From a virus, in the IMG/VR virus record IMGVR_UViG_3300033821_000019, positions 1 through 64,000 of that record: 64,000 nt of DNA. One strand, 5' to 3'. The notes under the pieces are model-generated. The model made no database searches and was not told the DNA's origin. It saw only the letters and a program-made list of their open reading frames with translations. Shown piece after piece: positions 1,052 through 60,814 of the stretch (the first letter of the stretch is position 1; each line of letters begins with the position of its first letter). The position numbers and the translations under genes are program-made.

Positions 1052-1384
1052 CTAATCCCATTCAACAGTGATGCCTAGCTTCTTTGCATTAGCGTCTGCC
1101 TTGACTTCCCGCATCATTTTACGTGCCTGATTCCTGTTTTCAAAAGTAACAGGCATCGCAATCAAACCGGGCTGGCCTCTTAAAGCTGTAACACTAATAC
1201 TGCCCATGTAAAGGTCAAATTCATAATCGCCGCTAAAGGAGTTGACATAATCATCAAGTTTTCCTTTAGTCTTTTCAGGATTGCCTGTGTATGGGATGAA
1301 AAAATTTAACGTGCCTTCTTCATCCCATGCAGTTAGAATTTGTGCTACTCTCCGTAGCTCCTTAGCTAAAGCTATCTTATTCAC
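1052..1384 (-). CDS. Helix-tagged hypothetical protein (110 aa)
   Basis: The N-terminus MNKIALAKELRRVAQILTA matches the recurrent N-terminal helix of this phage (K-I-A-x-E-L-x-x-V-A-x-x-L). Residues after about 22 form a separate small domain, probably alpha/beta, with strands such as FDLYMGSISVTAL and a basic helix RNQARKMMREVKAD. I do not recognise it. It sits in an operon-like run of tagged genes separated by 2-50 bases. By inference the tag is a shared sorting signal and the rest is cargo. Confidence 0.75.
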   Translation of the reverse strand: MNKIALAKELRRVAQILTAWDEEGTLNFFIPYTGNPEKTKGKLDDYVNSFSGDYEFDLYMGSISVTALRGQPGLIAMPVTFENRNQARKMMREVKADANAKKLGITVEWD

Positions 1385-1412
1385 GGCTATTCTCCTTTTA
1401 ATTTCATTACAA

Positions 1413-1661
1413 TTACTTAGGTTCTACTTTCTTTTTGCACTTCAAGCAATACTTAGTATTTTCAAGAACTTTTGTTCCGCAATTAGGACAAGGAAACGTG
1501 CCAGCCGCAACCGCTGCTTGCTTGACTTTCTTCTTACACTTTAGACAATAGCCAGTATTCTCCAAAACCTTAGTGCCACAATCAGGGCATGGGAAAGTTT
1601 CAGCACTTACAAGCTCTTTGGCCAGCTTCAACAATTCCGCCGCAATCTTCTGTCTGTCCAT
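1413..1661 (-). CDS. Helix-tagged protein with two duplicated zinc ribbons
   Basis: The tag is MDRQKIAAELLKLAKELVS at residues 1-19. Two nearly identical zinc-ribbon modules follow, each reading FPCPxCGTKVLENTxYCLKCKKKV, with C-x2-C and C-x2-C ligand pairs at about residues 24-45 and 56-78. The duplication is recent because the two modules differ at few positions. Zinc ribbons of this short type usually bind nucleic acid or protein partners; no catalytic domain is present. Neighbours on both sides also carry the tag. Confidence 0.8.
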   Translation of the reverse strand: MDRQKIAAELLKLAKELVSAETFPCPDCGTKVLENTGYCLKCKKKVKQAAVAAGTFPCPNCGTKVLENTKYCLKCKKKVEPK

Positions 1662-1712
1662 TGGGTTCTTCCTTTCTAAAATAGGCGCATCTATACGCCT
1701 TACCTGTTATGA

Positions 1713-2048
1713 TTATTCTTTTCCATCCACTTCCTTGGCACCTTCGTTAACAGAAGGCTTGTGCTCTGAGTCTAAAGTGGTCAACATCTTTTCCAATTCT
1801 CCGACGTGAACTTTTTCTTCCCTGCCAATATCAAGTAATACTTCTTTGAGCTTCTTATCGGTTACTACTTCTGCCAATCGCTCATACAAGTTGATAGCTT
1901 CATATTCAGCCATCGTCGCTACTCGTATTGCCCTCAGATTGACATTTTTGGATTCACCCTTGATTAGCTCGCCAAAGTTATCAGCGGCACCAGATGTGAG
2001 TCCTTTTGCTATCCTGAGTAGTTCTGAAGCAATTTTCTTATTATCCAT
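1713..2048 (-). CDS. Helix-tagged encapsulated-ferritin-like protein
   Basis: Start chosen at the ATG at 2046-2048, because it places the tag MDNKKIASELLRIAKGL at the N-terminus and has AAGGAC nine bases upstream. Residues 38-92 look like a two-helix ferritin-like domain: helix one holds AEYEAINLYERLAE with acidic residues E48 and E50, and helix two holds GREEKVHVGEL with an E78-x-x-H81 pair. This arrangement (Glu in the first helix, ExxH in the second) is the ligand pattern of encapsulated ferritins and rubrerythrin-like proteins, which oxidise Fe(II) and in encapsulin systems are loaded into an HK97-fold shell. Length, 111 residues, fits the small encapsulated type. Iron binding is inferred from motif only. 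Confidence 0.7.
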   Translation of the reverse strand: MDNKKIASELLRIAKGLTSGAADNFGELIKGESKNVNLRAIRVATMAEYEAINLYERLAEVVTDKKLKEVLLDIGREEKVHVGELEKMLTTLDSEHKPSVNEGAKEVDGKE

Positions 2049-2061
2049 AGTCTTCATGTCC

Positions 2062-2610
2062 TTATCTGCCTTCATCTTCCTGCACAATTTCAAAATCTAG
2101 CCCAAGAGAAAAAGTTGCTTTCCGTTCATTGATGTCTACTTTCAACCAACTCAAAGTCAAGTTCTTTTCCAACGCGCCAGAAGAACTATATTCCTTCCCG
2201 ATTAGGTCGTTCCAAATAACATCTGAGTCATCATTGTTCAACATATCTTTGGCACGTTCAATAATGTCTTGTTTAATTCTGACCCAATCGTATTTCTCAG
2301 CCGTTCTCTTAAATTGATTCAGATACTTCTTCAAACCGTCTCTGTCTTCACCAAATTGTTCCGTAGCGATAGCAGCCAAAAATTCCATAGTAGAACAGCT
2401 TACGTCAAATCTCAATGTGCCATAATAGGCCGTTCCATAATGTTCTGAATCTAGTTCCATACCTCTTGGCGCATCTCTATCAACACCTTCTTTACCTTCA
2501 TTGACAAATCTTGGATGTCCTTTTCTTATCAAAAACGACAAGAAATACTCAGGCTGCATCGCTATCATGTCGGCAACTATCTTCATCAATTCAATGGCTA
2601 TCTTTTTCAT
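2062..2610 (-). CDS. Helix-tagged hypothetical protein (182 aa)
   Basis: The N-terminus MKKIAIELMKIVADMIA is a variant of the recurrent tag lacking the V-A-x-E core spacing by one residue. The body has no motif I recognise; it contains a histidine/tyrosine-rich stretch (SEHYGTAYYGTLRF) and a helical middle (LKKYLNQFKRTAEKYDW). The gene ends inside the region upstream of the ferritin-like gene, so translation is probably coupled. Confidence 0.7.
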   Translation of the reverse strand: MKKIAIELMKIVADMIAMQPEYFLSFLIRKGHPRFVNEGKEGVDRDAPRGMELDSEHYGTAYYGTLRFDVSCSTMEFLAAIATEQFGEDRDGLKKYLNQFKRTAEKYDWVRIKQDIIERAKDMLNNDDSDVIWNDLIGKEYSSSGALEKNLTLSWLKVDINERKATFSLGLDFEIVQEDEGR

Positions 2611-2622
2611 TTTACAACCACC

Positions 2623-2997
2623 CTATATTACACCAATAGCCAATAACCAACTAGGCGCACCATCAACGCCCCAACCATCAGGCTCCACTCTTTGGCCCGT
2701 AACACTCTTAGCCACTCCATCGCTGCTCCATTTTTCAAGTGTGTTCATGCTCGGTGTTTTGTGAAATCCGCTAATATACTTATACAATGAACTAGTATGT
2801 ATCTTGATTGGCTGGACTTCATCATCGTCTATCGTAACAATAGCTACACTGGCGTCTTTGTTTTTCCATTCGACTTTACAGTGCATACCAACAGGAATAA
2901 CCGTTCCAGACCGTAGTTTAAGCTCTTTAACAATCTTATGGTCGGCTGCGATTACTTCTCTGGCGAGTTTAATCAATCTCAAAGCTATTTTGTTCAT
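2623..2997 (-). CDS. Helix-tagged hypothetical protein (124 aa)
   Basis: The tag reads MNKIALRLIKLAREVIAAD. The following domain is beta-rich: strands around GTVIPVGMHCKVEWKNKDASV and VAIVTIDDDEVQPIKI suggest a small barrel (SH3- or OB-like), but no family is recognised. It is the first gene of this run and a promoter-like T-rich element lies 45 bases upstream (3042-3057). Confidence 0.7.
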   Translation of the reverse strand: MNKIALRLIKLAREVIAADHKIVKELKLRSGTVIPVGMHCKVEWKNKDASVAIVTIDDDEVQPIKIHTSSLYKYISGFHKTPSMNTLEKWSSDGVAKSVTGQRVEPDGWGVDGAPSWLLAIGVI

Positions 2998-3041
2998 TAT
3001 AATCTCCTGCCAAAATAAGGTACTGTCTAATGGTAGGAGAG

Positions 3042-3095: not shown

Positions 3096-3809
3096 CTACT
3101 TTTTTGTATCATAAAGGCCGGGTAAGTTTTCAGGCTTTTTCCAAACGAAAGTTTCAAGGCTATTCATGTCACAGAGAGGTATGTCATTTCTCAAAACACT
3201 CTTTATCGGATGCCACACTCGTTTCTCTTTGTTCACCACACCAGCATCAAATTCCGGCTTACAATACCACCAAAATGTCTCATACGCGAAAGGATGCTGC
3301 TTGGCCTTAAATCCGTTCATCTTGCTTGCCGTAGCTGTTCTCATTTCAGAAATCACAGGCCAAAATTCTTGAGTGAATGTCTTAGACAACATCGCCATGA
3401 CTTCATCTTTCATCAACAATCCACATGATGGTGCTATACCACAAGCATAAGGTTGCGCTTTTACTGGCAACTGATAAACTGTCCTCATCCACGACCAATC
3501 GTTCCCCGGTAAAGATGACCCCGATATGTCTTCATCCCAAACCGGCCTGCAAAATTCTTCTACAAGCATACCAAAAAACACATCCCAATCCAAATAGAGC
3601 CAACGTTTACATTCTACCTTTCTTTGCTGATACCAATAATACATAGGGATATCGCAATGGAACCATGCGTCACCAGAACAATCTGTACTGCGAATGACAA
3701 TGAGTGGATAGTTGTTGGTGTTGCATTGAATGACAGAAGAAAGATTCTGCCGTACTACATTTATATCGGCAGTGTCATGGTATTGATAAATGATGCCCAA
3801 ATCATTCAT
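3096..3809 (-). CDS. Putative glycosyltransferase-like protein, copy 2 of a tandem pair
   Basis: Start at 3807-3809 is preferred because AAGGAAATT lies upstream and it aligns with the start of the paralogue. The two proteins share an N-terminal strand DLGIIxQYxD, a QRKVEC-RWLYLxWD block, an acidic W-x-D-x-F/Y centre, WPVISE-R-xTA-KMNGF, and WHPIKS/T near the end. The LDWDVF segment at about residue 75 could be a DxD-like metal site of a GT-A glycosyltransferase, but this is inference. No helix tag. It overlaps its paralogue by eight bases, consistent with tandem duplication. Confidence 0.6.
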   Translation of the reverse strand: MNDLGIIYQYHDTADINVVRQNLSSVIQCNTNNYPLIVIRSTDCSGDAWFHCDIPMYYWYQQRKVECKRWLYLDWDVFFGMLVEEFCRPVWDEDISGSSLPGNDWSWMRTVYQLPVKAQPYACGIAPSCGLLMKDEVMAMLSKTFTQEFWPVISEMRTATASKMNGFKAKQHPFAYETFWWYCKPEFDAGVVNKEKRVWHPIKSVLRNDIPLCDMNSLETFVWKKPENLPGLYDTKK

Positions 3810-4506
3810 AAAATCCAATTTCCTTATCTGGCCATACAAAAACGTCTAAACTGTTGATATCACGTTTTGGGATATCGTCATTAACAAGAGTCTTTATAGG
3901 ATGCCAAATACCACTTCTATGATATCGAGCCGCAATATTTGTTTCATCGGAGACATACCACTTAATAGTATACTTTGAATACGGGTGTTCTTTAATAATA
4001 AAACCATTCATTTTTGCTGCTGTTCCCACTCTCAATTCAGAGATGACTGGCCATGGTTCGTTAATAATTGTTTTTGATAAAACGTTCATTGCTTTGTCAG
4101 ACATCATGACAGCACACATAGGCCACACCCCACAAGCATTTTCACGTATTGCTTGCGTAGGTAAGTTTCCAATTTCACAGAACCAATGCCATCCATTATT
4201 TGGCAATGCAATGTTTGGAGCAGATATATCATCACTCCATACCGGCTTGAAAAAATCTTCTATAGACTGACAACAATAAGCATCCCATTCCAAATAAAGC
4301 CAGCGAGCACATTCCACTTTCCTTTGTTGATACCAATGAAACATCCCCAAATCGCCATTACGCCAAGCAGATTGGCCCTCAGTACGCTTTAATGGAATTA
4401 TGGGATATTTACCGTTACTGTAATGGATAAGAGAAGATAGATTTTGTGTAACTACGTCAGCAGGGGCACCGTCATAGTATTGAAAGATAATGCCTAAATC
4501 CGGCAT
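3802..4506 (-). CDS. Putative glycosyltransferase-like protein, copy 1 of a tandem pair
   Basis: A protein of 234 residues, paralogous along its whole length to the downstream gene. Conserved blocks are DLGIIFQYYD, QQRKVECARWLYLEWDAY, ACGVWPMCAVMMSD, EPWPVISELRVGTAAKMNGF and WHPIKT. The LEWDAY segment may be a metal-binding DxD-type site. The cysteine in ACG and the WHPIK motif are kept in both copies, so they are probably functional. A role in modifying DNA, capsid or host surface sugars is possible but not shown. Confidence 0.6.
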   Translation of the reverse strand: MPDLGIIFQYYDGAPADVVTQNLSSLIHYSNGKYPIIPLKRTEGQSAWRNGDLGMFHWYQQRKVECARWLYLEWDAYCCQSIEDFFKPVWSDDISAPNIALPNNGWHWFCEIGNLPTQAIRENACGVWPMCAVMMSDKAMNVLSKTIINEPWPVISELRVGTAAKMNGFIIKEHPYSKYTIKWYVSDETNIAARYHRSGIWHPIKTLVNDDIPKRDINSLDVFVWPDKEIGFYE

Positions 4507-4512
4507 ATAGTC

Positions 4513-5155: not shown

Positions 5156-5683
5156 TTAGTGGTATTTCTTCTTGATTTCTGAGATTTTATTTTGTATCTC
5201 ATCTAAATCACTACCTTCTATTTCTATATCAGATAGCATATCCTTCAATTCTGTCAATTCCTTCTCTGTTGAAGCAATATCAAGTCTTATCGAATTCAAC
5301 AAATCACTTTTCCTCTTTCCTTCTGCTTCGGCAGTTTGTTCTGGATGTGCTTTGATATGCTCATTCCAAGCTTTAGTAATTTCATCTATGATAATCCTTC
5401 TGAAACTTGGTGGCGCATCATCAAAATTGCGGGTGATATAAGGACGGTCAGCATTTCTAACCTGCCAAACACCACCAATCTCAAAAAGATGAAGACTGAC
5501 ATTGAATTCATCATTCCGTAACTTCAATTTTGAAATATTAGGAGTGCTCAAATGTACATGGTTTTTATTAGTAATGGCAAACTCAATGACGCCTTGGACT
5601 CTGCCATTGAAATGCAATAAACCACGTACATGGTCTGCACAAAAGCTCTTGGCTATCTTGGTAATTATCGAATCAAGACTCAT
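5156..5683 (-). CDS. Hypothetical protein with variant helix tag (175 aa)
   Basis: Start at 5681-5683 is chosen because GGGAAGGAT lies eight to ten bases upstream. The first residues, MSLDSIITKIAKSFCAD, keep the hydrophobic spacing and K-I-A-K-S-F of the tag but lack the E-L-L-K core. A beta-rich middle domain (LHFNGRVQGVIEFAI; FNVSLHLFEIGGVWQV) is followed by a C-terminal coiled coil from about residue 115 (EKELTELKDMLSDIEIEG). Function unknown. Confidence 0.65.
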   Translation of the reverse strand: MSLDSIITKIAKSFCADHVRGLLHFNGRVQGVIEFAITNKNHVHLSTPNISKLKLRNDEFNVSLHLFEIGGVWQVRNADRPYITRNFDDAPPSFRRIIIDEITKAWNEHIKAHPEQTAEAEGKRKSDLLNSIRLDIASTEKELTELKDMLSDIEIEGSDLDEIQNKISEIKKKYH

Positions 5684-5698: not shown

Positions 5699-6262
5699 CT
5701 ACTTTTCCATAAGGTTGTCGGCGTCCATACTGCTGATTAGAACTTCGCCTTGGTGTGTGAATGTCTTGCCGTTGTCTGTTAAGCGAATCGGATGAAGTAG
5801 TTTGGCTTCATACCAACTGCCGCGCTTCCTAAGTACCTTCACTAAATTGCCTTCTAGTAAATTAACAGCAGTAGAAGTTTCACCACTATGAGGAGAAACG
5901 GCTTCATGACCTTCTACCCAATAAGCTGAAAACTCCGTTACTACTTGATAGGTCTTGCCAATATCAAACATACCTTCTGCTGCAAAGAAATTTTTGGGAG
6001 CAATTTTTCTTAAATATCTTGCAACCACATCACCTGCTTTTGAACCTACATCATTGATAACGATTTTATCGCCTTCCCAATGTGCAAGTTTATTGCCGCC
6101 CATCCAACTGCCGTCCAGCGTCTTGCCGTCAGTAGAAAGCTTCTTGCCTGTAAGAGCTTTTTTGTCTGTGAAAGCATCAATAACCTTTTTGTCTTTATCC
6201 GACAAAATAAGGTCAGCAAGAAAATCTCTGGCTACTTTGATTACTATTTTAGAAGTGTCCAC
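5699..6262 (-). CDS. Hypothetical protein with variant helix tag (187 aa)
   Basis: A GTG start opens a variant tag, MDTSKIVIKVARDFLAD. The next region contains GSWMGGNKLAHWEGDKIVI, which reads like short beta hairpins with repeated G-x-W/H turns, and the C-terminal half has SH3-like strands (GNLVKVLRKRGSWYEAKLL). Two small beta domains are likely. No catalytic motif is visible. It lies between tagged genes with gaps of 3-16 bases. Confidence 0.65.
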   Translation of the reverse strand: MDTSKIVIKVARDFLADLILSDKDKKVIDAFTDKKALTGKKLSTDGKTLDGSWMGGNKLAHWEGDKIVINDVGSKAGDVVARYLRKIAPKNFFAAEGMFDIGKTYQVVTEFSAYWVEGHEAVSPHSGETSTAVNLLEGNLVKVLRKRGSWYEAKLLHPIRLTDNGKTFTHQGEVLISSMDADNLMEK

Positions 6263-8077: not shown

Positions 8078-8938
8078 TTATACTCTCGTGATGGTCAAAA
8101 CTTGGAGCGCATATGGATTGTAGGCTCCGATTCCGATATTCTCGAAGATTGAGAAACCAATCAAGCGATTCTTCGGGTCGTCAGCGGACAATACTGTCAA
8201 TTCTGTGCGGACAGGAATACGTCCGAAGAATTCTGGTTCACCGCAAACATAGACTGTACCTTCTGGAACGATGCGGGAAACAATCAACTTCGCGCCCCAC
8301 AGCGTTGCCATCAAACCAGTCTTCAACAACACTGCTTGTGTTTCGATGTCCAGTGTGTCGCGGTCCCATTTGCGGAGGTCAGCGTAGTCCTTAGCGTTCA
8401 GGAATACGTTGGCAACGCGAATGTCGGTTCTTTCAACGTTGGCGAAAGCATCGGCCAGAGCGTTGGCTGTCAAGTTACCAGTTACAGGAATCGCTGGATT
8501 CGGGTTGGTCGGGTTAGCCGAAAGAGCATCCATTACCGCGAAAACCTTGCGGTCTTCTTCGGCCTGGATTTCAGCCTTCGCCAAATCTACTGAACGTTCA
8601 ATCAGGTCGAAGCGGCGATTCTTGATTTCCGTCAACTGGATTTCTGGATTGCTTGCGATTTCGAAGAGCGGGAACAGAACGCGCTTCGGCTTTGCAACTG
8701 CTACGATATTCAAGCCTTCTTCGCCAACCACATACGCGGTTACGTTCGGGTCTTTATCGTAGATGGGGAGAGCGCCGTCTGGAAGGCGTTCAACGTAGAA
8801 AGCTCTGCGGCCAACGCTGGAATAATCGCGGCGTCTGCGTAGAGGCTGAATCATACTTGCGGCCAAACGTTGACGACCAGCAGCAGTCTTAATATACTGA
8901 CTGATAATCTCCTGTTTGGTATTGTTGTCAATAGCCAT
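8078..8938 (-). CDS. Major capsid protein (HK97 fold)
   Basis: A protein of 286 residues with a strong AAAGGAG site. Features of small HK97-fold capsid or encapsulin-like proteins: an N-terminal arm with an arginine-rich turn (PLRRRRDYSSVGRRAFYVE), a central spine helix (IERSVDLAKAEIQAEEDRKVFAVMDAL), a P-domain strand (VANVFLNAKDYADLRKW), and a C-terminal A-domain ending (GEPEFFGRIPVRTELTVLS; SIFENIGIGAYNPYALQVLTI). It lies directly downstream of decoration-like, scaffold-like and protease genes, the normal order of head genes. It has no helix tag. No scaffold delta domain is seen, in line with separate scaffold genes. Confidence 0.85.
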   Translation of the reverse strand: MAIDNNTKQEIISQYIKTAAGRQRLAASMIQPLRRRRDYSSVGRRAFYVERLPDGALPIYDKDPNVTAYVVGEEGLNIVAVAKPKRVLFPLFEIASNPEIQLTEIKNRRFDLIERSVDLAKAEIQAEEDRKVFAVMDALSANPTNPNPAIPVTGNLTANALADAFANVERTDIRVANVFLNAKDYADLRKWDRDTLDIETQAVLLKTGLMATLWGAKLIVSRIVPEGTVYVCGEPEFFGRIPVRTELTVLSADDPKNRLIGFSIFENIGIGAYNPYALQVLTITRV

Positions 8939-10225: not shown

Positions 10226-11239
10226 TTATTCAAACAGCTTGCTTACATCCGGTGCACTTTCCCAAAGATTGCTCAAGTCAATTTCCTTGCCTTCGGAAGC
10301 TACCTTTGGCTGTCCACCTAGCTTTGACACACCCTTCTTTTCAGAAGCCTTCTTAGCTTCTACTTTTTCTTCTTCGTCTTCGGCTTTCTTCTCTTCCATG
10401 TCTTCTGCTTCGAAGATTGATGCCAAGAGCTTTTCTTCGGCAGCGTTTACTTCGCCTTCTTCTTCATCTTCCGCAGCCGTTAGCTGAATATCCAATTCTG
10501 CGGCCTTCTTGGCTTCTACCTTCTCTTCTTCTTTATCTTCGCTCTTCTTGGCCTTTACTTCTTCTTTATCTTCGGCCTTCTTAGCTTCTACCTTCTCTTC
10601 TTCCTTGTCTTCGGCTTTCTTGGCTTCTAATTTTTCTTCTTCCTTGTCTTCGGCCTTCTTAGCTTCTACCTTTTCCTCTTCTTTATCTTCGCTCTTCTTG
10701 GCCTTTACTTCTTCTTTATCTTCGGCCTTTTTGGCGTCTTCTTTGGTGAAAGGTGGAGCCTTCTTATCGCCAAGGTTTTCAATCGGGTTCGCAGCTTTCT
10801 TGGCTTCTACCTTCTCTTCTTCCTTCTCTTCGGCTTTCTTGTAAAGGTTTTCTGAGTCAGCAAATCTCTTGAGTGATTCGTTCAAAGATTCAGAACCCAT
10901 CTTCATGAAATCGCGGGCTTGTGCTTCGATGGTGTTTTCTTCAACCTTATCACCAAGAAGAAGAACGGCCAACTTTACAGCCTTGGATGCAGCGGCACGA
11001 ATACTGGCAACGGTTGGAATCGGGAAACCGATTTCATCACGCTGGTCGTTCTGCCAATCGTGTCTCATATCCGGTAATTCATGATTTACTGTGTGTTCAA
11101 ACGTGTGATAATGGTCACGTTCTACAAATTTGCGGTCTGGCTGATTGACTGTACCTGGAAATGGTTTCTCAGGGTCACCACCGTTGCCTTCAGCACCTTC
11201 AGCGGCAGCAAGACGCTTAGTAAGACGTTCTCTTGCCAT
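10226..11239 (-). CDS. Acidic/lysine repeat scaffold-like head protein
   Basis: A protein of 337 residues. Residues 1-110 look folded and contain a helix ASIRAAASKAVKLAVLLLGD, similar in character to the window's helix tag. Residues about 135-235 are made of repeated KAEDKEEEKVEAKKA-type units, highly charged and probably a long helix or disordered. The C-terminus, GKEIDLSNLWESAPDVSKLF, is a short amphipathic segment, as often used by scaffold proteins to touch the capsid. Position between protease and capsid genes supports a scaffold or inner-core role. Confidence 0.6.
   Translation of the reverse strand: MARERLTKRLAAAEGAEGNGGDPEKPFPGTVNQPDRKFVERDHYHTFEHTVNHELPDMRHDWQNDQRDEIGFPIPTVASIRAAASKAVKLAVLLLGDKVEENTIEAQARDFMKMGSESLNESLKRFADSENLYKKAEEKEEEKVEAKKAANPIENLGDKKAPPFTKEDAKKAEDKEEVKAKKSEDKEEEKVEAKKAEDKEEEKLEAKKAEDKEEEKVEAKKAEDKEEVKAKKSEDKEEEKVEAKKAAELDIQLTAAEDEEEGEVNAAEEKLLASIFEAEDMEEKKAEDEEEKVEAKKASEKKGVSKLGGQPKVASEGKEIDLSNLWESAPDVSKLFE
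10500..10735 (-). repeat. Coding tandem repeat (KAEDKEEEK units)
   Basis: About seven imperfect units of 30-36 bases encode lysine/glutamate repeats in the scaffold-like protein. The strand bias is extreme (pyrimidine-rich on plus), which is expected from GAA/AAG codons. Confidence 0.75.
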
Positions 11240-11286: not shown

Positions 11287-12054
11287 TTACTTAGAAATCT
11301 GTGCACGATGAGCGTCAATAGCATCCGCCAACGTATCAATACGGAGTGCCAATTTCTTGTAACCTTGTTTTTCGAGATAAGAAGCAACGTTGTCCAGACG
11401 CTCAGATGCTTCCTTCAAGCGTGATGTGCGCTGTTGCTTAATGGCTTCACCACCCGTTTCGCCTTTGACCGGGCTGTTAAAGGCTTCTTCCATCTTGTCA
11501 AATTTTTGGGTGATTTCGTCTTCGATTCCAGGCTCTGTTTCAGAGGATTTCTTTGCTTCCTCTTCTTTTTCTTCTTCTACTGTTTCATTTTCTTCGTGTT
11601 CATCTGCTTTTTTCTCTTCTACCTTCTCTTCTACTTTTTCTTCGGCTTTCTTGGCTTCTACTTTCTCTTCTACTTCGTCTTCGGCCAAAATTGTTTGAGC
11701 AAGCTTCACCAACATGCCTGCTACTTTGTCAGAAGCTTCCATTGTTTCCTCCTCATCCTCAGAACGCTTGTCACAACCTTCGCATTCTTCGTCGTCAGCT
11801 TTCTTCGCTTCAACCTCAAATGCTTCTTCTTCTTCGTCTTCACCAGCAGCGTTGCAACCTTCACATTCGTCGTCTTCCAACTCTGCCTCAAGAGCACGAA
11901 TTTCAGTGAGGATATCGCCATCAGAAGCTTCAACGATTTCCTTTTCTTCCTTCTTGAGTTCTTCTGTTTCTTGCTTTAATTCGTCGTCTTGGTCGGCAAG
12001 ACGTTTTTCGAGAGCTTCGATTTCTTTACCGAGAGAGCCTGTTTCACGTCCCAT
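11287..12054 (-). CDS. Acidic coiled-coil scaffold-like protein with internal tag helix
   Basis: A protein of 255 residues. Residues 8-62 are a coiled coil (IEALEKRLADQDDELKQETE). Two CEGC motifs, at about 64-67 and 91-94, could bind metal or form disulphides. Residues 109-125 read SDKVAGMLVKLAQTILA, an internal copy of the N-terminal tag found elsewhere. A charged repeat region follows, and the C-terminus is again helical (LDNVASYLEKQGYKKLALRI). Strong AAGGAGG site. Position next to protease and capsid suggests a scaffold; the internal tag-like helix may link scaffold and tagged cargo. Confidence 0.6.
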   Translation of the reverse strand: MGRETGSLGKEIEALEKRLADQDDELKQETEELKKEEKEIVEASDGDILTEIRALEAELEDDECEGCNAAGEDEEEEAFEVEAKKADDEECEGCDKRSEDEEETMEASDKVAGMLVKLAQTILAEDEVEEKVEAKKAEEKVEEKVEEKKADEHEENETVEEEKEEEAKKSSETEPGIEDEITQKFDKMEEAFNSPVKGETGGEAIKQQRTSRLKEASERLDNVASYLEKQGYKKLALRIDTLADAIDAHRAQISK

Positions 12055-12272: not shown

Positions 12273-14537
12273 CTAGTGTTTTGCCGCCCAAATAGTAACT
12301 CTGTTTATAAGTTGTTCCTCCTTACGTCTCCGCAATTCGGCACAAGCCACGTGCAACGCCAGCATTCCATTTTTATCTGCTACGCGCAATCTACTTATGT
12401 CATCAAACAAACCTTCAAGGCTTGTAGTTGACATACTTAAGATATTCGCGTATTTCTTTGTATCCACTTCACTAATATAATGATTGAGTACCGCGCCTTG
12501 GAATGCTGGACGTTCTACCCAACTTGCTTCAATATAGATACAAGATTTCGGGTCACCTTTCCTCTTTCCATCTGAACCAATAATTGTTCTACCACACAAT
12601 TCAGCTACGATACGATTGATGCCATTTTCATCTACGAAATATGTCATCAATTCATTATCTAAGTGATGGCAATTGGTACTAGCATCAGTGAATTCTTTAC
12701 CACATTTACTACATTGTGTGAAGTTTGCCTGACATCCCATTGACATAGTTGTTAATGCGCCTGATTCTATCTTTCGAATAAGGTCACTATGTTTTCTGTC
12801 CGTTGCAACTAAAATGTCCGTGTAGTAGACATTGGCCTTTTTACCAGTTTTGCTAGTATAAGCTACAGGACGCAGCACAGCATCAAGAATTTTCCCCTTG
12901 GATAATTCTGGAATCTGACAGTTATGAACTATAACACCTTCTGCTATATAAGAATTATCATTTTCTACTTCAAGATTAAATACATCACACTCCAAATCAA
13001 TTGTAGATACTTCTGTAATCTTTGAGGTTATGTATTTTTGATTTTCATGTTCAAATACATAAGTAAACTTTTGTTCTTGCCTTGCTTGGATGAGTACATT
13101 GTTGTAATTCAAAATTTCATCTAGCGATTTTGAATCTTGTACTGTAAATCTTAATAAATATCCGGGTCTTGATTTCTTTCCGGTATTGGGGTCAACGAAT
13201 ACTTGATATCCGTCTACTATTGTTTCTTCTGAATATCTCGGCAATACACCTGTTTCTTTGTATACGGGGTTCATTCCCAAACGCCAAGATATAAACATTA
13301 GTTGTTGAATCAGCGCCTTCGTCTTTAATTCAATACTATAACCACGTGACTCGCCTTTGTCTGTGCCGTCGCCATTGATTAAATGCTTCATAATTAATGC
13401 TTGTAGTTCCAAGGGCAACCATAACGCCGCATCATTAAGTTGTTTTGCCCAAGCATACTTACCACACCATTTTTTGAAGAATTCTGCAACTTTGATATTA
13501 CAAAGAGATACACACCAAGAACCACTTTCAGATTCATATACTCTAGGCTCGCAATCGCTTCTAAACAACTCTACAAATTCTGTAATTAAAAGTGATTTTA
13601 TTCTTTCTGCAACATCGCATTCGTCATTTCCAAGAGCAAATTGAACTCCCGACTCTCCATCATTAAATATATTTTGACTAGTAAAAGAACCTTCTGCCAA
13701 GAACCATCCTATTAACTCTGCACGATTCTTGTTTACTTCATTATTTTCTATTATAGTAGAAGAAACCGGATGAGTTAAGAAATCACGGTCTTTATTTATC
13801 TTCCCGGCATCTACCCATTGAGGTGTAAGTCCACAAGGATAATCTTCACCTTTTCTCTTATGAACACCTACAGTAAATCCGGTCCACTTATTCAGCGTCA
13901 AACCACTAAAATCAGGTGGATTGTTTGGTCGTCCTGTTTTTGGGCAAGTCTCTCTGGCGTGGTATACCCAAAATGGATGATTTGCGGTGACATACATATC
14001 CCTTGACAAAATTCCATTGCTTGTTATTTTTGTCAAAGAAGTAGATTTTCTAATTTGAACATTCTTTACAACATCTATATTTCCAAGCCTGTTGATAATT
14101 TTATCACCGGGTTTTATAGTCTCAATAGCTTGATAAGTTCCATTAGCCATTAAAACTCTAGTACCAGCCACAAAACAATGTTCAAGGTAATTTTCAGCAC
14201 CCACAAATGAACGGAAACAAGCCAGTAGAACTTCATCTGACCAGCCATTACCATTATTATTGACTAGTTCATCGGTAGGAGCTTTAACGTAGTAGCCATT
14301 TTCTTCCACATTGCAGCTTGATACAATACTACAATGACTGAATAAATATTTGTCTGCGCTGAACTTATTCCAATCTATATTTATATCTCTGGCGATTCTA
14401 ACATTGCCATTACCAGCATAGCTCCATTCCTTCTTTGGATTGTAAAGGATAGAGGCTATGGGCAAGTCAATTTCGAATGTTCTTGCTTTGTTAGAAGCTT
14501 CCAAAAGGCATTTATCGTTATCGCAGCGTCTATTCAT
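12273..14537 (-). CDS. Prohead protease precursor interrupted by an intein
   Basis: The precursor has 754 residues: N-extein 1-120, intein 121-539, C-extein 540-754, so the spliced product would have 335 residues. The extein resembles herpesvirus-type/T4-like prohead proteases: WSDEVLLACFRSFVGAENYLEH ends in the putative catalytic His120, the C-extein begins CQIPELSKGKILDAVL, and the putative nucleophile lies in ALTTMSMGC. A C-x2-C...C-H-H cluster (CSKCGKEF...NCHH) looks like a small zinc site. A conserved EASWVERPAFQGAVLNHYI end is typical of this family. These enzymes cleave scaffold and capsid arms in the prohead. The intein sits directly after the catalytic His. The start codon has a weak ribosome site, perhaps because the 5' end was disturbed by the HNH insertion. 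Confidence 0.75.
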   Translation of the reverse strand: MNRRCDNDKCLLEASNKARTFEIDLPIASILYNPKKEWSYAGNGNVRIARDINIDWNKFSADKYLFSHCSIVSSCNVEENGYYVKAPTDELVNNNGNGWSDEVLLACFRSFVGAENYLEHCFVAGTRVLMANGTYQAIETIKPGDKIINRLGNIDVVKNVQIRKSTSLTKITSNGILSRDMYVTANHPFWVYHARETCPKTGRPNNPPDFSGLTLNKWTGFTVGVHKRKGEDYPCGLTPQWVDAGKINKDRDFLTHPVSSTIIENNEVNKNRAELIGWFLAEGSFTSQNIFNDGESGVQFALGNDECDVAERIKSLLITEFVELFRSDCEPRVYESESGSWCVSLCNIKVAEFFKKWCGKYAWAKQLNDAALWLPLELQALIMKHLINGDGTDKGESRGYSIELKTKALIQQLMFISWRLGMNPVYKETGVLPRYSEETIVDGYQVFVDPNTGKKSRPGYLLRFTVQDSKSLDEILNYNNVLIQARQEQKFTYVFEHENQKYITSKITEVSTIDLECDVFNLEVENDNSYIAEGVIVHNCQIPELSKGKILDAVLRPVAYTSKTGKKANVYYTDILVATDRKHSDLIRKIESGALTTMSMGCQANFTQCSKCGKEFTDASTNCHHLDNELMTYFVDENGINRIVAELCGRTIIGSDGKRKGDPKSCIYIEASWVERPAFQGAVLNHYISEVDTKKYANILSMSTTSLEGLFDDISRLRVADKNGMLALHVACAELRRRKEEQLINRVTIWAAKH
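12921..14177 (-). mobile_element. LAGLIDADG-containing intein in the prohead protease
   Basis: A 419-residue intein in frame. It starts with Cys1 in CFVAGTRVLMANGTYQAI (block A), has ANHPFWVY (block B, with the His), LIGWFLAEGSF and a second motif in LIMKHLINGDGTD (LAGLIDADG endonuclease), and ends NSYIAEGVIVHN followed by Cys+1 (blocks F and G). All splice-site residues are present, so splicing should be possible. Boundaries were read from codons: Cys1 at 14175-14177 and terminal Asn at 12921-12923. Confidence 0.93.
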
Positions 14538-15734: not shown

Positions 15735-16217
15735 TTAATCGTCGTAATTTATTGCCTGTTTTAGCATTGAGAAAAATTCACCGACTTGGCTCGACTGATT
15801 CTTTGGTCCATGTTTTCTCGCAAATTCGCCGCTAAATTTTCCTTCCACAATAGCCTTAGCATGTTGAAGAACTTTGTTTTTCCATGGTGCCTTTGACTTG
15901 CCCAAAGCTTTAACTACATTGATGAAATTTTCTTTTGAAGGAGCTTTGGTTATCAATTTATTTACTTCTGTAATCCCTTCATCGTCTTTATGCGGAGTTT
16001 TAACAACATCATCAAACCAAGCATCTGTATGCGAGTCAAAAGTTCCAGACTTAGATTTATTCTCTTCTGGCTTCGTCTTTACTACTTTGTGATTTCTCTT
16101 ATCAGCATCAGGATGTTCCTTGAGATAGACTTGCATAGCTCTATCCGTTGGGAAATCAATGGCCAATAAACTCTGAGCTACTTTAATTAATTCTGAGGCT
16201 ACTAGTCTCTTATCCAT
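15735..16217 (-). CDS. Helix-tagged hypothetical protein (160 aa)
   Basis: The tag is MDKRLVASELIKVAQSLLA. The rest is lysine- and aspartate-rich, with a middle linker (KPEENKSKSGTFDSHTD) and a helical C-terminal domain (ENFINVVKALGKSKAPWKNKVLQH). This tag is the closest match to the one in the next gene, so the two 5' ends are recent duplicates. Confidence 0.7.
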   Translation of the reverse strand: MDKRLVASELIKVAQSLLAIDFPTDRAMQVYLKEHPDADKRNHKVVKTKPEENKSKSGTFDSHTDAWFDDVVKTPHKDDEGITEVNKLITKAPSKENFINVVKALGKSKAPWKNKVLQHAKAIVEGKFSGEFARKHGPKNQSSQVGEFFSMLKQAINYDD

Positions 16218-16228: not shown

Positions 16229-16462
16229 TTATATGACTTTGTTAGACGGTATTTTCCAACCACAGCCAGGACAAATGTAAATTTTAACACCCCTCGAAAA
16301 TGGTTGGCGTTCCATAATATCTTTACATTTAGGACATATACAAGACTCTTTTTCTACTTCACCTTTTGAACGCTTGTAAACTCTTCCAACATCATGATGA
16401 TAAACAGCCAATAAACTTCTGGCTACTTTAATTAGTTCTGACGCTACTAATTTCTTGTCCAT
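16229..16462 (-). CDS. Helix-tagged zinc-ribbon protein (77 aa)
   Basis: The tag is MDKKLVASELIKVARSLLA. After a basic linker there is a zinc ribbon with C-I-C-P-K-C and C-P-G-C ligand groups about 20 residues apart (residues 43-68). It is a second tagged zinc-ribbon protein, unrelated in detail to the one at 1413-1661. Possible DNA- or RNA-binding cargo. Confidence 0.75.
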   Translation of the reverse strand: MDKKLVASELIKVARSLLAVYHHDVGRVYKRSKGEVEKESCICPKCKDIMERQPFSRGVKIYICPGCGWKIPSNKVI

Positions 16463-26646: not shown

Positions 26647-27399
26647 TCACTCTTTCAGATTCATTATTTTTCCATCTTTTATATAGCCCTTTTCCAAATC
26701 CGGCAGTAAATAGTGTTTTCTTAGTGTAGCTGGCCCATGTCCTACTTTTTCTGCCACATTTTTGATAATCTCATTAAACTTCTTTTGCCGGTCTTTTTCT
26801 TCCTTGATACTGTTTTGGCGCTTCAAGCATTCTATTACCATGCGGTTTGCTGAGTAACCGCGCATATCTTTGGCAGTCACTTCAAACTCATCAAGGTAAC
26901 GATTGATTTTGTCGGCTTTGATTTTGAATCCGTCTTTCGTCACCATCACGAAAGAATCAGGCTTATCTGCTCTCTTTAACAGTCCTGACAATATTTTGGC
27001 TATGGTTTCATTAGTGAATTCTTTTTCATGCTCTACAGACGACTTGCCTACATAATTCAGCATTACTTTGGAACCTTCGACTTTAATATGTTTCTTCTTC
27101 AAACCAGTGATGCCAACATGGTCTTCTTCTGCTGATGCATCATTGCCCACACGCTCCGCTGTCTTATCCATCATGGCCACAACCAATGCAGTTAATTGTG
27201 TCTTTTCATCTTCGTTTTTTAAATCACGTGTCACTTTGTTTCTCAGACCTTGTATATTCTGAGAAATCGTATGCACCGCGTCTATCTTTTTCTTGGCACG
27301 CTCTTTCTCTGCGTCTGTTAAATCTTTAGCTTTGCCAAATTCACCGCGCAGTAATTTGGCGACATGCAAAAGTTCTCTAGCTATGTGTATTTTATTCAT
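26647..27399 (-). CDS. Helix-tagged type IB DNA topoisomerase
   Basis: A protein of 250 residues. The N-terminus MNKIHIARELLHVAKLLRG is the shared tag. The rest is the catalytic domain of a poxvirus-like type IB topoisomerase, which relaxes DNA supercoils through a 3'-phosphotyrosine intermediate. All five catalytic residues can be placed by comparison with vaccinia enzyme motifs: R83 (TAERVGN), K119 (YVGKSS hairpin), R180 (TAKDMRGY), H221 (VGHGPA) and nucleophile Y230 (LRKHYLLP). The flanking VGITGLKKKHIKV block is typical. The usual N-terminal DNA clamp is replaced by the tag, so it may work as a minimal enzyme. Four bases separate it from the terminase gene. A role on packaged or incoming DNA is inferred. 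Confidence 0.88.
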   Translation of the reverse strand: MNKIHIARELLHVAKLLRGEFGKAKDLTDAEKERAKKKIDAVHTISQNIQGLRNKVTRDLKNEDEKTQLTALVVAMMDKTAERVGNDASAEEDHVGITGLKKKHIKVEGSKVMLNYVGKSSVEHEKEFTNETIAKILSGLLKRADKPDSFVMVTKDGFKIKADKINRYLDEFEVTAKDMRGYSANRMVIECLKRQNSIKEEKDRQKKFNEIIKNVAEKVGHGPATLRKHYLLPDLEKGYIKDGKIMNLKE

Positions 27400-30510: not shown

Positions 30511-30591
30511 TATCCTCTCCCTGAAACAAATTTGCAGAAGGCACCTTTTAACAGAAAGCACCTTCTGCAAATCACCTCCTAAAAACGGTGC

Positions 30592-51911: not shown

Positions 51912-52163
51912 TTAAGGCTTGAGCATTTCCATAATATCTTCGATAGCACCTTGGGCATTTTGATACCTTGATGCTATGCGGTGAATGTATGGTATATCAG
52001 AGTATTGGTCTAGTTTACCAAAAGCGTCATCAAGAACAAGACGGGCCTTGGCAAATTCGTTGCGAGCCACAGCAGCATCTTCACGAGTATATGGTTTGCC
52101 TTTGAAGCCCATAAGCATTTTAGCCGCCTTAACCAATTCTCTAGCCACACGCATTCTGTTCAT
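51912..52163 (-). CDS. Helix-tagged small protein (83 aa)
   Basis: The tag is MNRMRVARELVKAAKMLMG. The rest is a single helical domain (REDAAVARNEFAKARLVLDD; IHRIASRYQNAQGAIEDIMEM). It is far from the main tagged clusters, so the tag is used in several operons. AGGGACA lies before the ATG. Confidence 0.7.
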   Translation of the reverse strand: MNRMRVARELVKAAKMLMGFKGKPYTREDAAVARNEFAKARLVLDDAFGKLDQYSDIPYIHRIASRYQNAQGAIEDIMEMLKP

Positions 52164-54048: not shown

Positions 54049-54058
54049 ACTGTCCTCC

Positions 54059-54589: not shown

Positions 54590-54593
54590 AGCC

Positions 54594-55181
54594 CTAGTGT
54601 TTTGAAATCCTTATGTGTGGAATTTTGTTAAAAATTTCGCCATGCTCCATTGTGGCACCCAACTGACCGTCTTCGTCAGCGTATTCAACTTTATACATAT
54701 GTTCTAATGGCCACTTCTTCAAAAGCTTGTTGGAAATCTCTTTGGCAAAAGCCGTGTCTTTCTCGTCCACATTTTTCCAAAACGCTTCTCTCTCTTCTTC
54801 TGTTCCATCAGCCACTTCTTCCGTGTCGTATTCAGGCTCTTTTATCTTGCCTAGTACGGGTTCATTCTCTGGCTCATCGCCAACAACACCATTTTTCAAA
54901 ATCTCGGCGAGCATTTCAAAAGATGTGATTTTACCGCATTCTCTACTGTGGTCTTTAATTTGTTCACCTTGCAAGTTCCTAAAAACAATGGCGGCAATTT
55001 CCTTGGTAGAGAATTTAATCGCTTCAGAATTAGGATGGTTGTCGTTGTACGGATAATCTATATACAACTGGTCGCCAAACAATAGTTCTTCCGTTTCCTT
55101 GACGCTCCCCGGCAATTTGGGAAGTACAAGGATGAACGCACTTGAGCTACTGTTGCTGACAAAACCATGCCTCTGTTTCAT
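54594..55181 (-). CDS. SNSSS-motif family protein, member 3 (195 aa)
   Basis: It begins MKQRHGFVSNSSSSAFILVL and is the closest paralogue of the next gene. Shared elements are the LLFGDQLYI block, KFSTKEIAAIVFR, an acidic middle insertion, and the identical ending EHGEIFNKIPHIRISKH. The shared ending shows strong conservation of the C-terminus. It has a poor ribosome site, so it may rely on coupled translation. Confidence 0.7.
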   Translation of the reverse strand: MKQRHGFVSNSSSSAFILVLPKLPGSVKETEELLFGDQLYIDYPYNDNHPNSEAIKFSTKEIAAIVFRNLQGEQIKDHSRECGKITSFEMLAEILKNGVVGDEPENEPVLGKIKEPEYDTEEVADGTEEEREAFWKNVDEKDTAFAKEISNKLLKKWPLEHMYKVEYADEDGQLGATMEHGEIFNKIPHIRISKH

Positions 55182-55183
55182 GA

Positions 55184-55753
55184 CTAGTGTTTTGAAATCC
55201 TTATGTGCGGAATTTTGTTAAAAATTTCGCCATGCTCCATTGTAGAACCCAAATCGCCATCTTCATCAGCATATTCTACACGATAAAGGTGCTTCAAAGG
55301 CCACTTCTTCAAAATCTTCTTTGCAACTTTGTCAGCAAACTCATCCATAGCCTTGTCATGTTCCTTATATCGTTTGTCTCTATCTGCATCCGTTTCATTT
55401 GGGTCATAATTCCATTCCATTTTAGGTGCTACAATACCTTCATATTTATTTAACCAACCATCCCGCACGATATTTTCCAAATCGTGAATAGTCTCTATGT
55501 GACCAGCATCATCATGCCTAGAAAGTGGCAAGGCTGGCGGCTTATGTGTGATATCATGAAGAACAATAGCCGCAATCTCCTTGGTGGAAAACTTCTCGCA
55601 AGCAGGATGAAGGTCTTTATACGGATGTTCCACATAAAGCTCGTCGCCAAATAGCAGTTCTTCCATTTCCTTGACAATTTCCGGTACTTTCGGAAAGACA
55701 AGGATGAATGCGCTTGAGCTACTGTTACTGACAAAGCCATGTCGCTGTTTCAT
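55184..55753 (-). CDS. SNSSS-motif family protein, member 2 (189 aa)
   Basis: It begins MKQRHGFVSNSSSSAFILVF and has the same architecture as member 3, ending EHGEIFNKIPHIRISKH. The middle (RDGWLNKYEGIVAPKMEWNY) differs most. The near-identical 5' and 3' ends suggest recent duplication or gene conversion. Confidence 0.7.
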   Translation of the reverse strand: MKQRHGFVSNSSSSAFILVFPKVPEIVKEMEELLFGDELYVEHPYKDLHPACEKFSTKEIAAIVLHDITHKPPALPLSRHDDAGHIETIHDLENIVRDGWLNKYEGIVAPKMEWNYDPNETDADRDKRYKEHDKAMDEFADKVAKKILKKWPLKHLYRVEYADEDGDLGSTMEHGEIFNKIPHIRISKH

Positions 55754-55765
55754 TCTTGCAATCCT

Positions 55766-56152
55766 TTAATTCCAAAAAGCCTTATGACGTAATTTTCTAA
55801 AAGCTCCGCTATACCCCTCAAAATTCACCGATTCTGGAACGACTAACCAAAACACTTTTGATTGCCTGTTCTGCTTGAAAAAGTTCTTGGCTTGCACCAT
55901 TTGTTCTTTGCGCAACTTCTTATCAGTCATGTCACCACATCCACGCACATAGCTACCACTTTTCACTATCTGGTTAAAAATGAGTGCTGCAAACACTTTT
56001 GGCGACTCTTTCAAGTCAGTGTGTTCGTTGCATAAATAGTCTTCATCAAAGAGCATGGTTTCAAGCTCTGCAACATTCTCAGGAGCCTTATTGAAAGCTA
56101 CCAAAAACGAGCATGAAGAACTATTACTTACGAATCCCGACCTGATTTTCAT
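55766..56152 (-). CDS. SNSSS-motif family protein, member 1 (128 aa)
   Basis: It begins MKIRSGFVSNSSSCSFLVAF and is shorter than the others. It keeps the block after the motif (APENVAELETMLFDEDYL) and a VFAALIFNQIV helix, but has a different, basic C-terminus (LRKEQMVQAKNFFKQNRQSK). It overlaps the upstream gene by 29 bases. Confidence 0.7.
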   Translation of the reverse strand: MKIRSGFVSNSSSCSFLVAFNKAPENVAELETMLFDEDYLCNEHTDLKESPKVFAALIFNQIVKSGSYVRGCGDMTDKKLRKEQMVQAKNFFKQNRQSKVFWLVVPESVNFEGYSGAFRKLRHKAFWN

Positions 56153-59558: not shown

Positions 59559-59584
59559 AAGCACCTCCTTTATGCTTATGGCTA

Positions 59585-59600
59585 TATAAAAGAATTATGA
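59585..59600 (-). promoter_or_regulatory. Putative phage promoter, T-rich class
   Basis: Minus-strand TCATAATTCTTTTATA lies between the tmRNA 3' end and the HNH gene start, 27 bases from it. It could give the HNH gene its own expression. Confidence 0.45.
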
Positions 59601-59633
59601 ATGCGACGGGAATTGCTGGTGGAGGTGGCGGGA

Positions 59634-59925
59634 CATCTGTATCTTTGCTTTCACAAAGTATGGACTATTCCTTCATCTGGTTTTTATCCAGAGAGTGGCG
59701 TTTATGATTTCAATTCATGCTAATCCTTAAAAGGATTGCTTAAATTTATCCATCCTAGTGACGCCATGATTTTTCAATTTTAGGCGTTCTATGAGTCTCT
59801 AGACCATCGCCATGATTTCTCAATGGTTTTGGTACGGTGTTTTCATGGGTTATTCCTAACCTTTAGAATTCGCCGTTTGAGCCACTTTTTTGCGCAAGAA
59901 TCACTTCTTGCCTCGACAATTCCTT
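59634..59925 (-). mobile_element. Group I intron in the tmRNA T-loop
   Basis: A 292-base insertion splits the T-loop after TTCGAT. It begins after U (5' splice site) and ends in G (GATG), the rule for group I introns. P1 forms between exon TTCGAT (59931-59926) and GTCGAG (59917-59912) with a U-G pair at the splice site. Core elements are a GTCTAGAGACT block (59794-59804, R-like) and AAGGAATAGTCC (59662-59673, S-like, P7 3' strand). No reading frame is inside. The intron must be removed for the tRNA-like domain to fold. Confidence 0.88.
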
Positions 59926-60142
59926 ATCGAACCCGCGTCCTGAGATACTCCAAAGCAAGCGTCTACACGTTTAGTTGCAGATTTGGGACTTCGGTTTGAA
60001 ACTGGCTCTACAACGGCCATTCTCAATCCTATTCTGATTGTCTCACTTTTCAATTCCTCAGATGGTGGAACTGAAAGCCAGTCTGATTGGGTACGCAGTT
60101 ATAGGCATCCAGACGTAATCCCTATAACCACGTCGCTGGTGT

Positions 60143-60199
60143 TTAGGCAGCGATTTCAGCTACCTTGCGGAAGCTGAAGTCAACGTGTGTTACGTTGGC
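60143..60199 (-). other. tmRNA tag-peptide reading frame
   Basis: The resume codon GCC at 60197-60199 starts a tag of 18 residues, ANVTHVDFSFRKVAEIAA, with stop TAA at 60143-60145. The upstream TAACT matches the usual spacing before the resume codon. The tag ends in I-A-A, so it keeps the AA end needed for ClpXP-type degradation, and begins A-N as in most tags. Confidence 0.82.
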
Positions 60200-60361
60200 A
60201 GTTAGTTATTTTCCCCGGTGGATTTTACGTGGCCAACCTGAGAACTCCACGACATGCAGCTACGCCTCTCGGCAATCCAGTCGAAACCTGTTCACCCCCA
60301 TATTCAGCTTCAAAGAACCACTGTCACTTCCTCATTATATCGTCATCTTTGCCAAATTCCA

Positions 60362-60814
60362 CTAATTTTCTTTGGGAAAAAACTTCAACGGCTTGAGCAA
60401 GTTCTTCTCTGGAACACTGTGAAAACCTTCGTATTTATGTTTTTCAAAAAGCTCGATTGGAAGTTTTTCATCTAACTCATTAAAATTACCAATGCCATAT
60501 TTGAACAAAGTTGCATCCACTATTTTATTATCAACGACCACCCACGCATGAAGAAGTTTGTCCAAGATTTCTTCTTTCTCGTGTTTGCCAGCGAATCCTT
60601 GCCAAACAAAATGATAGCTTGCCGACAGATAACCTACCCAATACACCGGCTCTTTGCCACGCTCTTTTTGTGCCCAATATTCCTTTCGCGCATTCTCAAA
60701 ACACCAACGAACTTCGCCTTTGGTAAACTGTTTTTCCATCACAGAAGGCATTGTTTCAGACAAAATACCTTTTGCCAATTTCAGTAACTCTTTTGCTATC
60801 AATAGTTTATACAT
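60362..60814 (-). CDS. Helix-tagged protein with a possible cysteine-hydrolase fold
   Basis: Start at 60812-60814 exposes the tag MYKLLIAKELLKLAKGILSE. The domain that follows has a possible catalytic triad in the order of papain-like or transglutaminase-like folds: Cys in EVRWCFENA (about residue 40), His in HAWVVVDNK (about 102) and Asp in IVDATLF (about 111). Similar C-H-D layouts occur in lasso-peptide proteases and related phage proteins. It ends in a lysine-rich segment. Placed by itself between two RNA genes. Activity is inferred from motif only. Confidence 0.6.
   Translation of the reverse strand: MYKLLIAKELLKLAKGILSETMPSVMEKQFTKGEVRWCFENARKEYWAQKERGKEPVYWVGYLSASYHFVWQGFAGKHEKEEILDKLLHAWVVVDNKIVDATLFKYGIGNFNELDEKLPIELFEKHKYEGFHSVPEKNLLKPLKFFPKEN

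What the first reader, a model, noticed from the sequence alone, without database searches (positions are those of the whole stretch)
1052..60814. A shared N-terminal helix on at least 17 unrelated proteins: a possible virion-loading tag
Seen: genes starting at 1384, 1661, 2048, 2610, 2997, 5145, 5683, 6262, 6511, 6910, 7227, 7683, 16217, 16462, 27399, 52163 and 60814 all begin with a 17-20 residue amphipathic helix, consensus M-D-N-K-K-V-A-x-E-L-L-K-L-A-K-x-L; four others are weaker (684, 1050, 19057, 52380). The bodies behind it are unrelated (topoisomerase IB, ferritin-like, zinc ribbons, cysteine-hydrolase-like, coiled coil). For several genes the 5' DNA is nearly identical while the rest is not, so the tag has been copied separately. 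Known: phage T4 internal head proteins carry a short N-terminal capsid-targeting sequence removed by the prohead protease, and encapsulin cargo also uses a short peptide. Inference: this is a sorting tag for head cargo, possibly ejected with DNA. The A-x-E element in many copies resembles the A/G/S-x-E cleavage motif described for phage phiKZ's protease.
Basis: partly seen in the sequence, partly recalled or inferred. Interest (0 to 1): 0.92.

Follow-up and report, generated by a model that had tools for sequence, protein, structure and literature searches.

The report
Shared cargo helix in phage-G-like phages
A relative of the giant phage G, known only from environmental DNA, puts the same 18-residue helix at the front of about fifteen otherwise unrelated proteins, and a similar helix sits on a protein encoded among its head-building genes, so the helix probably loads those proteins into virus particles for delivery into the next bacterium.

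Summary
The observation largely holds. With a profile built only from other phages, 15 window N-termini stand out (18.7-43.9 bits; the next best scores 1.9; no shuffle reaches them). Two of the 17 claimed (5683, 6262) and the four 'weaker' ones do not pass individually. The 5' DNA is not nearly identical (best pair 82%).

The record is related to Bacillus phage G (capsid protein 37% identical). The tag recurs in related phages: 82 hits outside the window phage, none in reversed proteins. It is more alike within one phage (50%) than between phages (42%), while the following 18 residues share 6% either way.

Two findings tie it to the head. A protein encoded just after the head protease ends in a similar helix in many relatives, there without the glutamate typical of cargo tags. 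A zinc ribbon that is part of a larger head-module protein in 13 distinct relatives is a separate, tagged protein here; in one other phage a split ribbon has no tag. Tagged bodies include topoisomerase IB, a ferritin-like protein, a CCA-adding enzyme and an LPD29 protein.

Best reading: a capsid-targeting helix that works like phage T4's CTS but is not shown to belong to it. The A-x-E cleavage idea is not supported. There are no virion data.

The parts
1052..1384 (-). tagged gene, tag = first 19 codons; body unknown
   Evidence: 21.2 bits with the relatives-only matrix; no homologue in fetched loci
1413..1661 (-). tagged double zinc ribbon
   Evidence: 42.0 bits; Pfam Zn_Ribbon_1/DZR above cut-off; tagged homologues in L090, L091, L093
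1713..2048 (-). tagged ferritin-like protein
   Evidence: 39.5 bits; Rubrerythrin 28.8 bits above cut-off, EncFtn-like 24.3 below its cut-off of 27
2062..2610 (-). tagged gene, body unknown
   Evidence: 18.7 bits
2623..2997 (-). tagged gene, body unknown
   Evidence: 25.3 bits
4513..5145 (-). tagged gene, body unknown
   Evidence: 36.0 bits
6266..6511 (-). tagged gene, body unknown
   Evidence: 36.5 bits; tagged homologue in L007
6536..6910 (-). tagged gene, body unknown
   Evidence: 43.9 bits
6913..7227 (-). tagged gene, body unknown
   Evidence: 35.0 bits
7276..7683 (-). tagged gene; body matches phrog_3308 (unknown function)
   Evidence: 40.1 bits; phrog_3308 E 8.5e-16
15735..16217 (-). tagged gene; tag followed by an 'FPTxxAxxxYLKEHPDADK' stretch that recurs in relatives
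   Evidence: 29.1 bits; homologues in 12 loci
16229..16462 (-). tagged zinc ribbon; in 13 distinct relative ORFs the same domain is part of the protein of 16474-16965
   Evidence: 37.3 bits
16474..16965 (-). untagged head-module protein, first half of the chain that is whole in relatives
26647..27399 (-). tagged topoisomerase IB
   Evidence: 27.4 bits; Topoisom_I E 4e-30
51912..52163 (-). tagged gene, body unknown
   Evidence: 43.1 bits
60362..60814 (-). tagged gene, body unknown (an upstream start at 60829 is possible)
   Evidence: 19.2 bits from the 60829 start
11287..12054 (-). ORF A, candidate scaffold-core protein; internal tag-like helix at about residues 108-126
   Evidence: 8.7 bits with the cargo-tag profile; helical model with C-terminal hairpin
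10226..11239 (-). ORF B, candidate major scaffold protein
   Evidence: conserved family between ORF A and the decoration gene; role inferred from gene order
12273..14537 (-). head maturation protease with intein
   Evidence: phrog_18299 E 1e-8; intein domains below Pfam cut-offs
8078..8938 (-). major capsid protein, untagged
   Evidence: phrog_2522 E 6e-52
5156..5683 (-). claimed tag, not supported individually
   Evidence: p 0.019 per gene
5699..6262 (-). claimed tag, not supported individually
   Evidence: p 0.006 per gene
304..684 (-). possible decayed tag on a conserved body
   Evidence: p 0.054; tagged homologue L097; loose helix then compact body in the model

Best explanation
The tag is a capsid-targeting (cargo-loading) helix. 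Cargo proteins encoded on the strand of the head genes carry it at the N-terminus. Its hydrophobic face, with nearly invariant alanines seven residues apart (A7, A14) and leucines L10 and L17, packs onto the scaffold core that fills the procapsid. Proteins of that core carry a similar helix: at the C-terminus of a small protein encoded next to the protease in relatives, and inside ORF A in the window phage. The shell closes round the loaded core, the core is removed during maturation, and the cargo stays in the head and enters the next host with the DNA. Shown: the shared helix, its spread, its likeness within each phage, the similar helix in the protease-scaffold locus, the split gene, and the domains of some bodies. 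Inferred: that ORF A, ORF B and the small protein are the scaffold core; that tag and core helix touch; packaging; ejection. Not supported: removal of the tag at A-x-E.
For: Fifteen N-termini on bodies of which those with a domain match are unrelated. Tags of one record are more alike than tags of different records, 0.497 against 0.417 over 409 and 2,344 pairs in 8 records (z 9.3; reduced alphabet z 7.3); the next 18 residues give 0.061 and 0.061. Tags on homologous bodies of different records average 0.44 over 38 pairs. A similar helix in proteins encoded between protease and ORF B scores 8 bits or more in 12 of 22 such stretches, reversed proteins at most 2.8. All 38 hits in capsid-gene loci other than the near-twin are on the capsid strand. 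Zinc ribbon: part of a head-module chain in 17 ORFs, 13 distinct; separate and tagged in the window. No capsid, portal, TerL or protease gene is among the 30 best N-termini. Cargo domains: topoisomerase IB, ferritin-like, zinc ribbons; in relatives a CCA-adding enzyme, a WYL-like domain below cut-off and LPD29 (tags 27.4, 25.3 and 13.9 bits). T4 and P1 target proteins to the head by N-terminal signals (PMC9026906 and PMC9024508, passages).
Against: No virion proteome and no isolate. In L030/L032 the same zinc ribbon is also on a separate frame but has no tag (2,009 of 5,000 shuffles reach its score), so the split-gene argument rests on one case of two. The ADP-ribosyltransferase chain L096 has no N-terminal tag (578 of 5,000 shuffles); its strong tag is internal. 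Core helix and cargo tags do not co-vary by phage (p 0.11, 10 records). Ten of 22 protease-scaffold stretches show no core helix at 8 bits. Tags are found in 24 of 62 loci with close capsid proteins and 0 of 21 more distant ones. Some tagged genes (51912, 60362) lie outside the head module. Amphipathicity is modest: mean moment 0.41 against 0.25 for shuffles, only 28% of tags above the 95th percentile.
Confidence: 0.68

Rival explanations
2. The tag sorts proteins to another place in the infected cell: a phage nucleus or replication body, or the membrane.
For: Short shared peptides could sort proteins to any compartment; the helix is amphipathic and lysine-rich; some tagged genes lie outside the head module.
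Against: A similar helix occurs in the protease-scaffold locus; nearly invariant alanines and a glutamate suggest helix-helix packing more than lipid binding (inference). I did not search for a nucleus shell protein.
Confidence: 0.12
3. A mobile or regulatory 5' cassette: the DNA of gene starts is copied for expression reasons, and the helix is a by-product.
For: One pair is 82% identical in DNA (16217/16462) and codon agreement slightly exceeds expectation (44% against 38%).
Against: Upstream DNA is not shared; codons are nearly randomised; the helix also occurs at C-termini and inside chains.
Confidence: 0.04
4. Chance likeness of amphipathic N-terminal helices.
For: Six of the fifteen score inside the shuffle range in the whole-ORF search.
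Against: Leave-one-out E values, the relatives-only matrix, and 94 hits of 10 bits or more against 0 in reversed proteins.
Confidence: 0.01

Closest known systems
Phage T4 capsid-targeting sequences (internal proteins IPI-III, Alt)
   Same: Short N-terminal peptide on several internal head proteins; works through the scaffold core; cargo includes an injected ADP-ribosyltransferase (Alt) (PMC9026906, passages).
   Different: T4: the first 10 residues of IPIII suffice, removed by gp21 after a glutamate (same passages). Here about 18 residues, also found C-terminal and internal, with no sign of a cleavage site.
Phage P1 DarB N-terminal packaging signal
   Same: N-terminal 30 residues direct a reporter to the capsid (PMC9024508, passages).
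   Different: Described there for DarB; here one helix is on about fifteen genes. No sequence comparison was made.
SPN3US / phiKZ head-protein propeptides
   Same: N-terminal regions of inner head proteins with a proposed targeting role (PMC5694885, PMC10052503, passages).
   Different: Mostly 111-254 residues in SPN3US, two of 20 and 24; cleaved by a known protease. The A-x-E resemblance was tested and not supported.
Encapsulin cargo-loading peptides
   Same: Recalled: a short peptide docks unrelated enzymes, ferritin-like proteins among them, inside an HK97-fold shell.
   Different: Recalled: usually C-terminal and docking on the shell protein; here mostly N-terminal, and the proposed partner is a scaffold core.

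Membership tests
T4-type CTS | Short N-terminal peptide shared by otherwise unrelated internal proteins | tested here: met
   for sharing; that the proteins are internal is not testable here
T4-type CTS | Removed by the head protease after a glutamate motif | tested here: inconclusive
   A-x-E is conserved in the cargo helix (E9 90 of 103) but 0 of 28 capsid N-termini have [AGS]-x-E; no cleavage data
T4-type CTS | Sufficient to package a foreign protein | not testable with these tools
   needs a phage and a fusion
T4-type CTS | Acts through the scaffold core | tested here: inconclusive
   similar helix in the protease-scaffold locus; no contact shown; co-variation p 0.11
phiKZ/SPN3US propeptides | Cleavage motif shared with the capsid protein | tested here: not met
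   0 of 28 distinct capsid N-termini
Encapsulin cargo-loading peptide | Docks on the inner face of the shell protein | not tested
   no complex modelling was available

The most novel reading that the evidence does not exclude
Heads of this phage family are loaded through a helix-pairing code: cargo helices carry glutamate at position 9 (90 of 103), core-protein helices lack it (0 of 19; K or R in 11 of 19), so an acidic cargo helix pairs with a basic core helix, and any domain joined to it is packed and injected. That would make the head a general, evolvable protein-delivery container with tens of cargo types. The contrast (Fisher p 4e-14) is inflated, because the cargo profile itself favours E9 and one of the 103 is a core helix.
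Probability: 0.28. Interest if true: 0.86.

Novelty: new variant of a known kind. Interest (0 to 1): 0.73.

Why it matters
If right, one short helix marks which genes of an uncultivated, phage-G-like group act inside the particle and at the first moment of infection. That gives a sequence rule for finding injected effectors among hypothetical proteins, predicts part of a virion proteome before an isolate exists, points to a candidate scaffold core in this group, and offers a new peptide for loading proteins into large phage heads.

Tried and rejected
Rejected or not supported: recent copying of 5' DNA; a purely regulatory 5' element; A-x-E as the head protease site. Led nowhere: Foldseek of ORF A in PDB and of the 304 gene in PDB and BFVD (no match at E <= 0.001); Pfam on four proteases (no protease family); co-variation of core helix and cargo tags; a genome-contig scan with the capsid protein (one contig of an uncultured bacterium); the tag profile in phage G, Tunturi_5, Myrna and LR745208 (no match). 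Paper searches listed nothing that I recognised from titles and abstracts as describing such a tag; the letters of the second N-terminal motif were in no paper. The library holds only open-licence PMC papers. The phage G virion mass-spectrometry paper cited in PMC8570332 was not read.

Selection effects. Profile A1 has 16 rows, 9 from the window and 7 from relatives, so hit counts favour window-like tags. The 94 hits come from 9,365 distinct frames that include the window record: 12 are from the window or its near-twin L006, 38 from L007-L085, and 44 from L090-L101, stretches fetched because one search had found hits there. For some searches, hits under 8 bits or with gaps were dropped, identical tag-plus-body copies merged, near-duplicate records pooled, pairs with homologous bodies left out, and only the 8 records with 4 or more tags used. 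In one search the 12 of 22 includes L031 and L037, whose core helices are the same; three more loci have hits of 3-4 bits. In one search one of the 17 distinct tails (L051) had no helix by my pattern. In one search the near-twin L006 was left out, and four of the six ribbon-only frames begin at or next to the start of the held stretch. Gene calls in relatives are my own; one seemingly untagged homologue (L090 2957-3805) was a wrong start and has an upstream tag. Part of the output was cut.
Full report
What the record is. The window is the first 64,000 bases of a 78,380-base IMG/VR virus record. Its minus strand holds a tailed-phage head module: TerL with an intein (27403-30570), portal (22328-24568), protease with an intein (12273-14537), two candidate scaffold genes (11287, 10226), two decoration-like genes (9662, 9111) and the major capsid protein (8078-8938). 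Scaffold and decoration names rest on gene order. The capsid protein is 70% identical to that of a 485-kb uncultured phage, 48% to Tunturi_5 and 37% to Bacillus phage G. A protease of a relative (L041) is 44% identical to Tunturi_5's annotated head protease over 226 residues and 26% to phage G gp19.

The tag is real. Nine minus-strand genes begin with nearly the same 19 residues; left out one at a time they are found again at E 1e-6 to 1e-10. With a matrix made only from 77 tags of other phages, 14 of 96 window N-termini score 18.7-43.9 bits, the next 1.9, and none of 19,200 shuffles reaches 18.7. A fifteenth, 52163, scores 43.1. In a whole-ORF search seeded with the nine, the other six lie inside the shuffle range, so they rest on the N-terminal test.

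It is held at the protein level. Among the nine, tag DNA is 42-82% identical, while upstream and downstream DNA is far less alike. Codons at shared amino acids agree in 44% of cases against 38% expected. Over 103 gap-free tags A14 is kept in 102, A7 in 97, L10 in 94 and E9 in 90; position 19 is A, S or G in 94, and conservation ends there.

It is a family feature, most alike within each phage. One search fetched 80 loci with related capsid genes. Profile A1 gives 94 hits of 10 bits or more, 82 of them outside the window phage and its near-twin, and none in reversed proteins. Of 27 records searched whole, 19 have hits at E <= 0.5, for example 22 in G005, 13 in G015 and 11 in G004; phage G, Tunturi_5, Myrna, LR745208 and four others have none. 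Of 62 loci with capsid proteins at least 82% identical, 24 have a hit of 10 bits; of 21 more distant loci none. Many of these loci are short. Tags on unrelated bodies of one record share 49.7% of residues, tags of different records 41.7%; the residues after the tag share 6.1% either way. Tags on homologous bodies of different records average 44%. The tag thus follows its genome rather than its gene, as expected if the tags of one phage fit one partner, or if they copy one another.

Link to head assembly. In many relatives the gene after the protease codes for a small protein ending in a similar helix after a 'DQNxxAxxNWP' stretch. With a profile trained on 92 tags that include no core helix, such helices score 8 bits or more in 12 of 22 protease-to-ORF B stretches; reversed proteins reach 2.8. 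In the window phage the helix lies inside ORF A. ORF A is modelled as a coiled coil, a helix over the tag-like stretch (block pLDDT 73-86) and a C-terminal hairpin (block pLDDT 78-97); no solved structure matches. Position 9 of the core helices is never E (0 of 19, window included; K or R in 11) whereas cargo tags have E in 90 of 103. Cargo hits were chosen by a profile that rewards E9, so the contrast is partly built in.

A split gene. In 17 ORFs of relatives, 13 distinct, one chain holds both the 16474-16965 protein and the zinc ribbon of 16229-16462. In the window phage the ribbon is a separate gene with a tag. That the parent is a virion protein is inferred from its place between portal and protease. 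In L030/L032 the ribbon is also on a frame of its own, and that start has no tag, so the argument holds in one case of two.

What is tagged. In the window: topoisomerase IB, a ferritin-like protein, zinc ribbons. In relatives: a CCA-adding enzyme and a WYL-like domain below cut-off and LPD29, all in L098, with tags of 27.4, 25.3 and 13.9 bits. LPD29 is named among the domains of polyvalent proteins, part of which are thought to be packaged in the head (PMC5512222, passages). An ADP-ribosyltransferase (PF03496, 23.5 bits, cut-off 23.4) sits in a 635-residue chain of L096 whose start is not a tag but which has a strong internal one (25.2 bits). T4's Alt is an injected ADP-ribosyltransferase (PMC9026906, passages). 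Chains with several tag-like segments exist: L067 joins them to the core protein in one frame, L031 has three. The 304 gene model shows a loose N-terminal helix (block pLDDT 57) before a compact body, but its own tag is weak.

Judgement. The helix most likely works like a capsid-targeting sequence. Whether it belongs to a known family is open: the one phiKZ-type feature tested was not met, and the T4-type features were met only in part or could not be settled. The steps from tag to core contact, packaging and ejection are inferred.

Noticed in passing
window 53500-56152 (-) and record 64086-70067 (in L005): Fourteen genes share a different N-terminus, MKxRxGFVSNSSSSSF, on at least 8 body groups by BLASTP. 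Five of six tested match phrog_7397 (unknown function), mostly over the N-terminal part; the motif letters were in no paper.
   Followed up: partly
window 27403-30570 and 12273-14537 (-): Inteins in the terminase large subunit (with a LAGLIDADG domain) and probably in the head protease, where the Pfam matches are below cut-off.
   Followed up: no
L086 (Bacillus phage G) and its whole record: Six places in phage G start MKRL[IV]K, control pattern none; two of them are gp38 and gp53. Possibly a parallel N-terminal signal.
   Followed up: partly
L067 380-2296, L031 2910-4964, L012 4912-5712, window 15735-16217: A second recurring stretch, 'xFPTQDAxDKYxKEHPDADKSxH', follows the tag in several proteins.
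   Followed up: partly
window 3096-3809 and 3802-4506 (-): Two untagged genes with similar starts ('DLGIIxQYxD') sit inside the run of tagged genes, with no homologue in the fetched loci.
   Followed up: no
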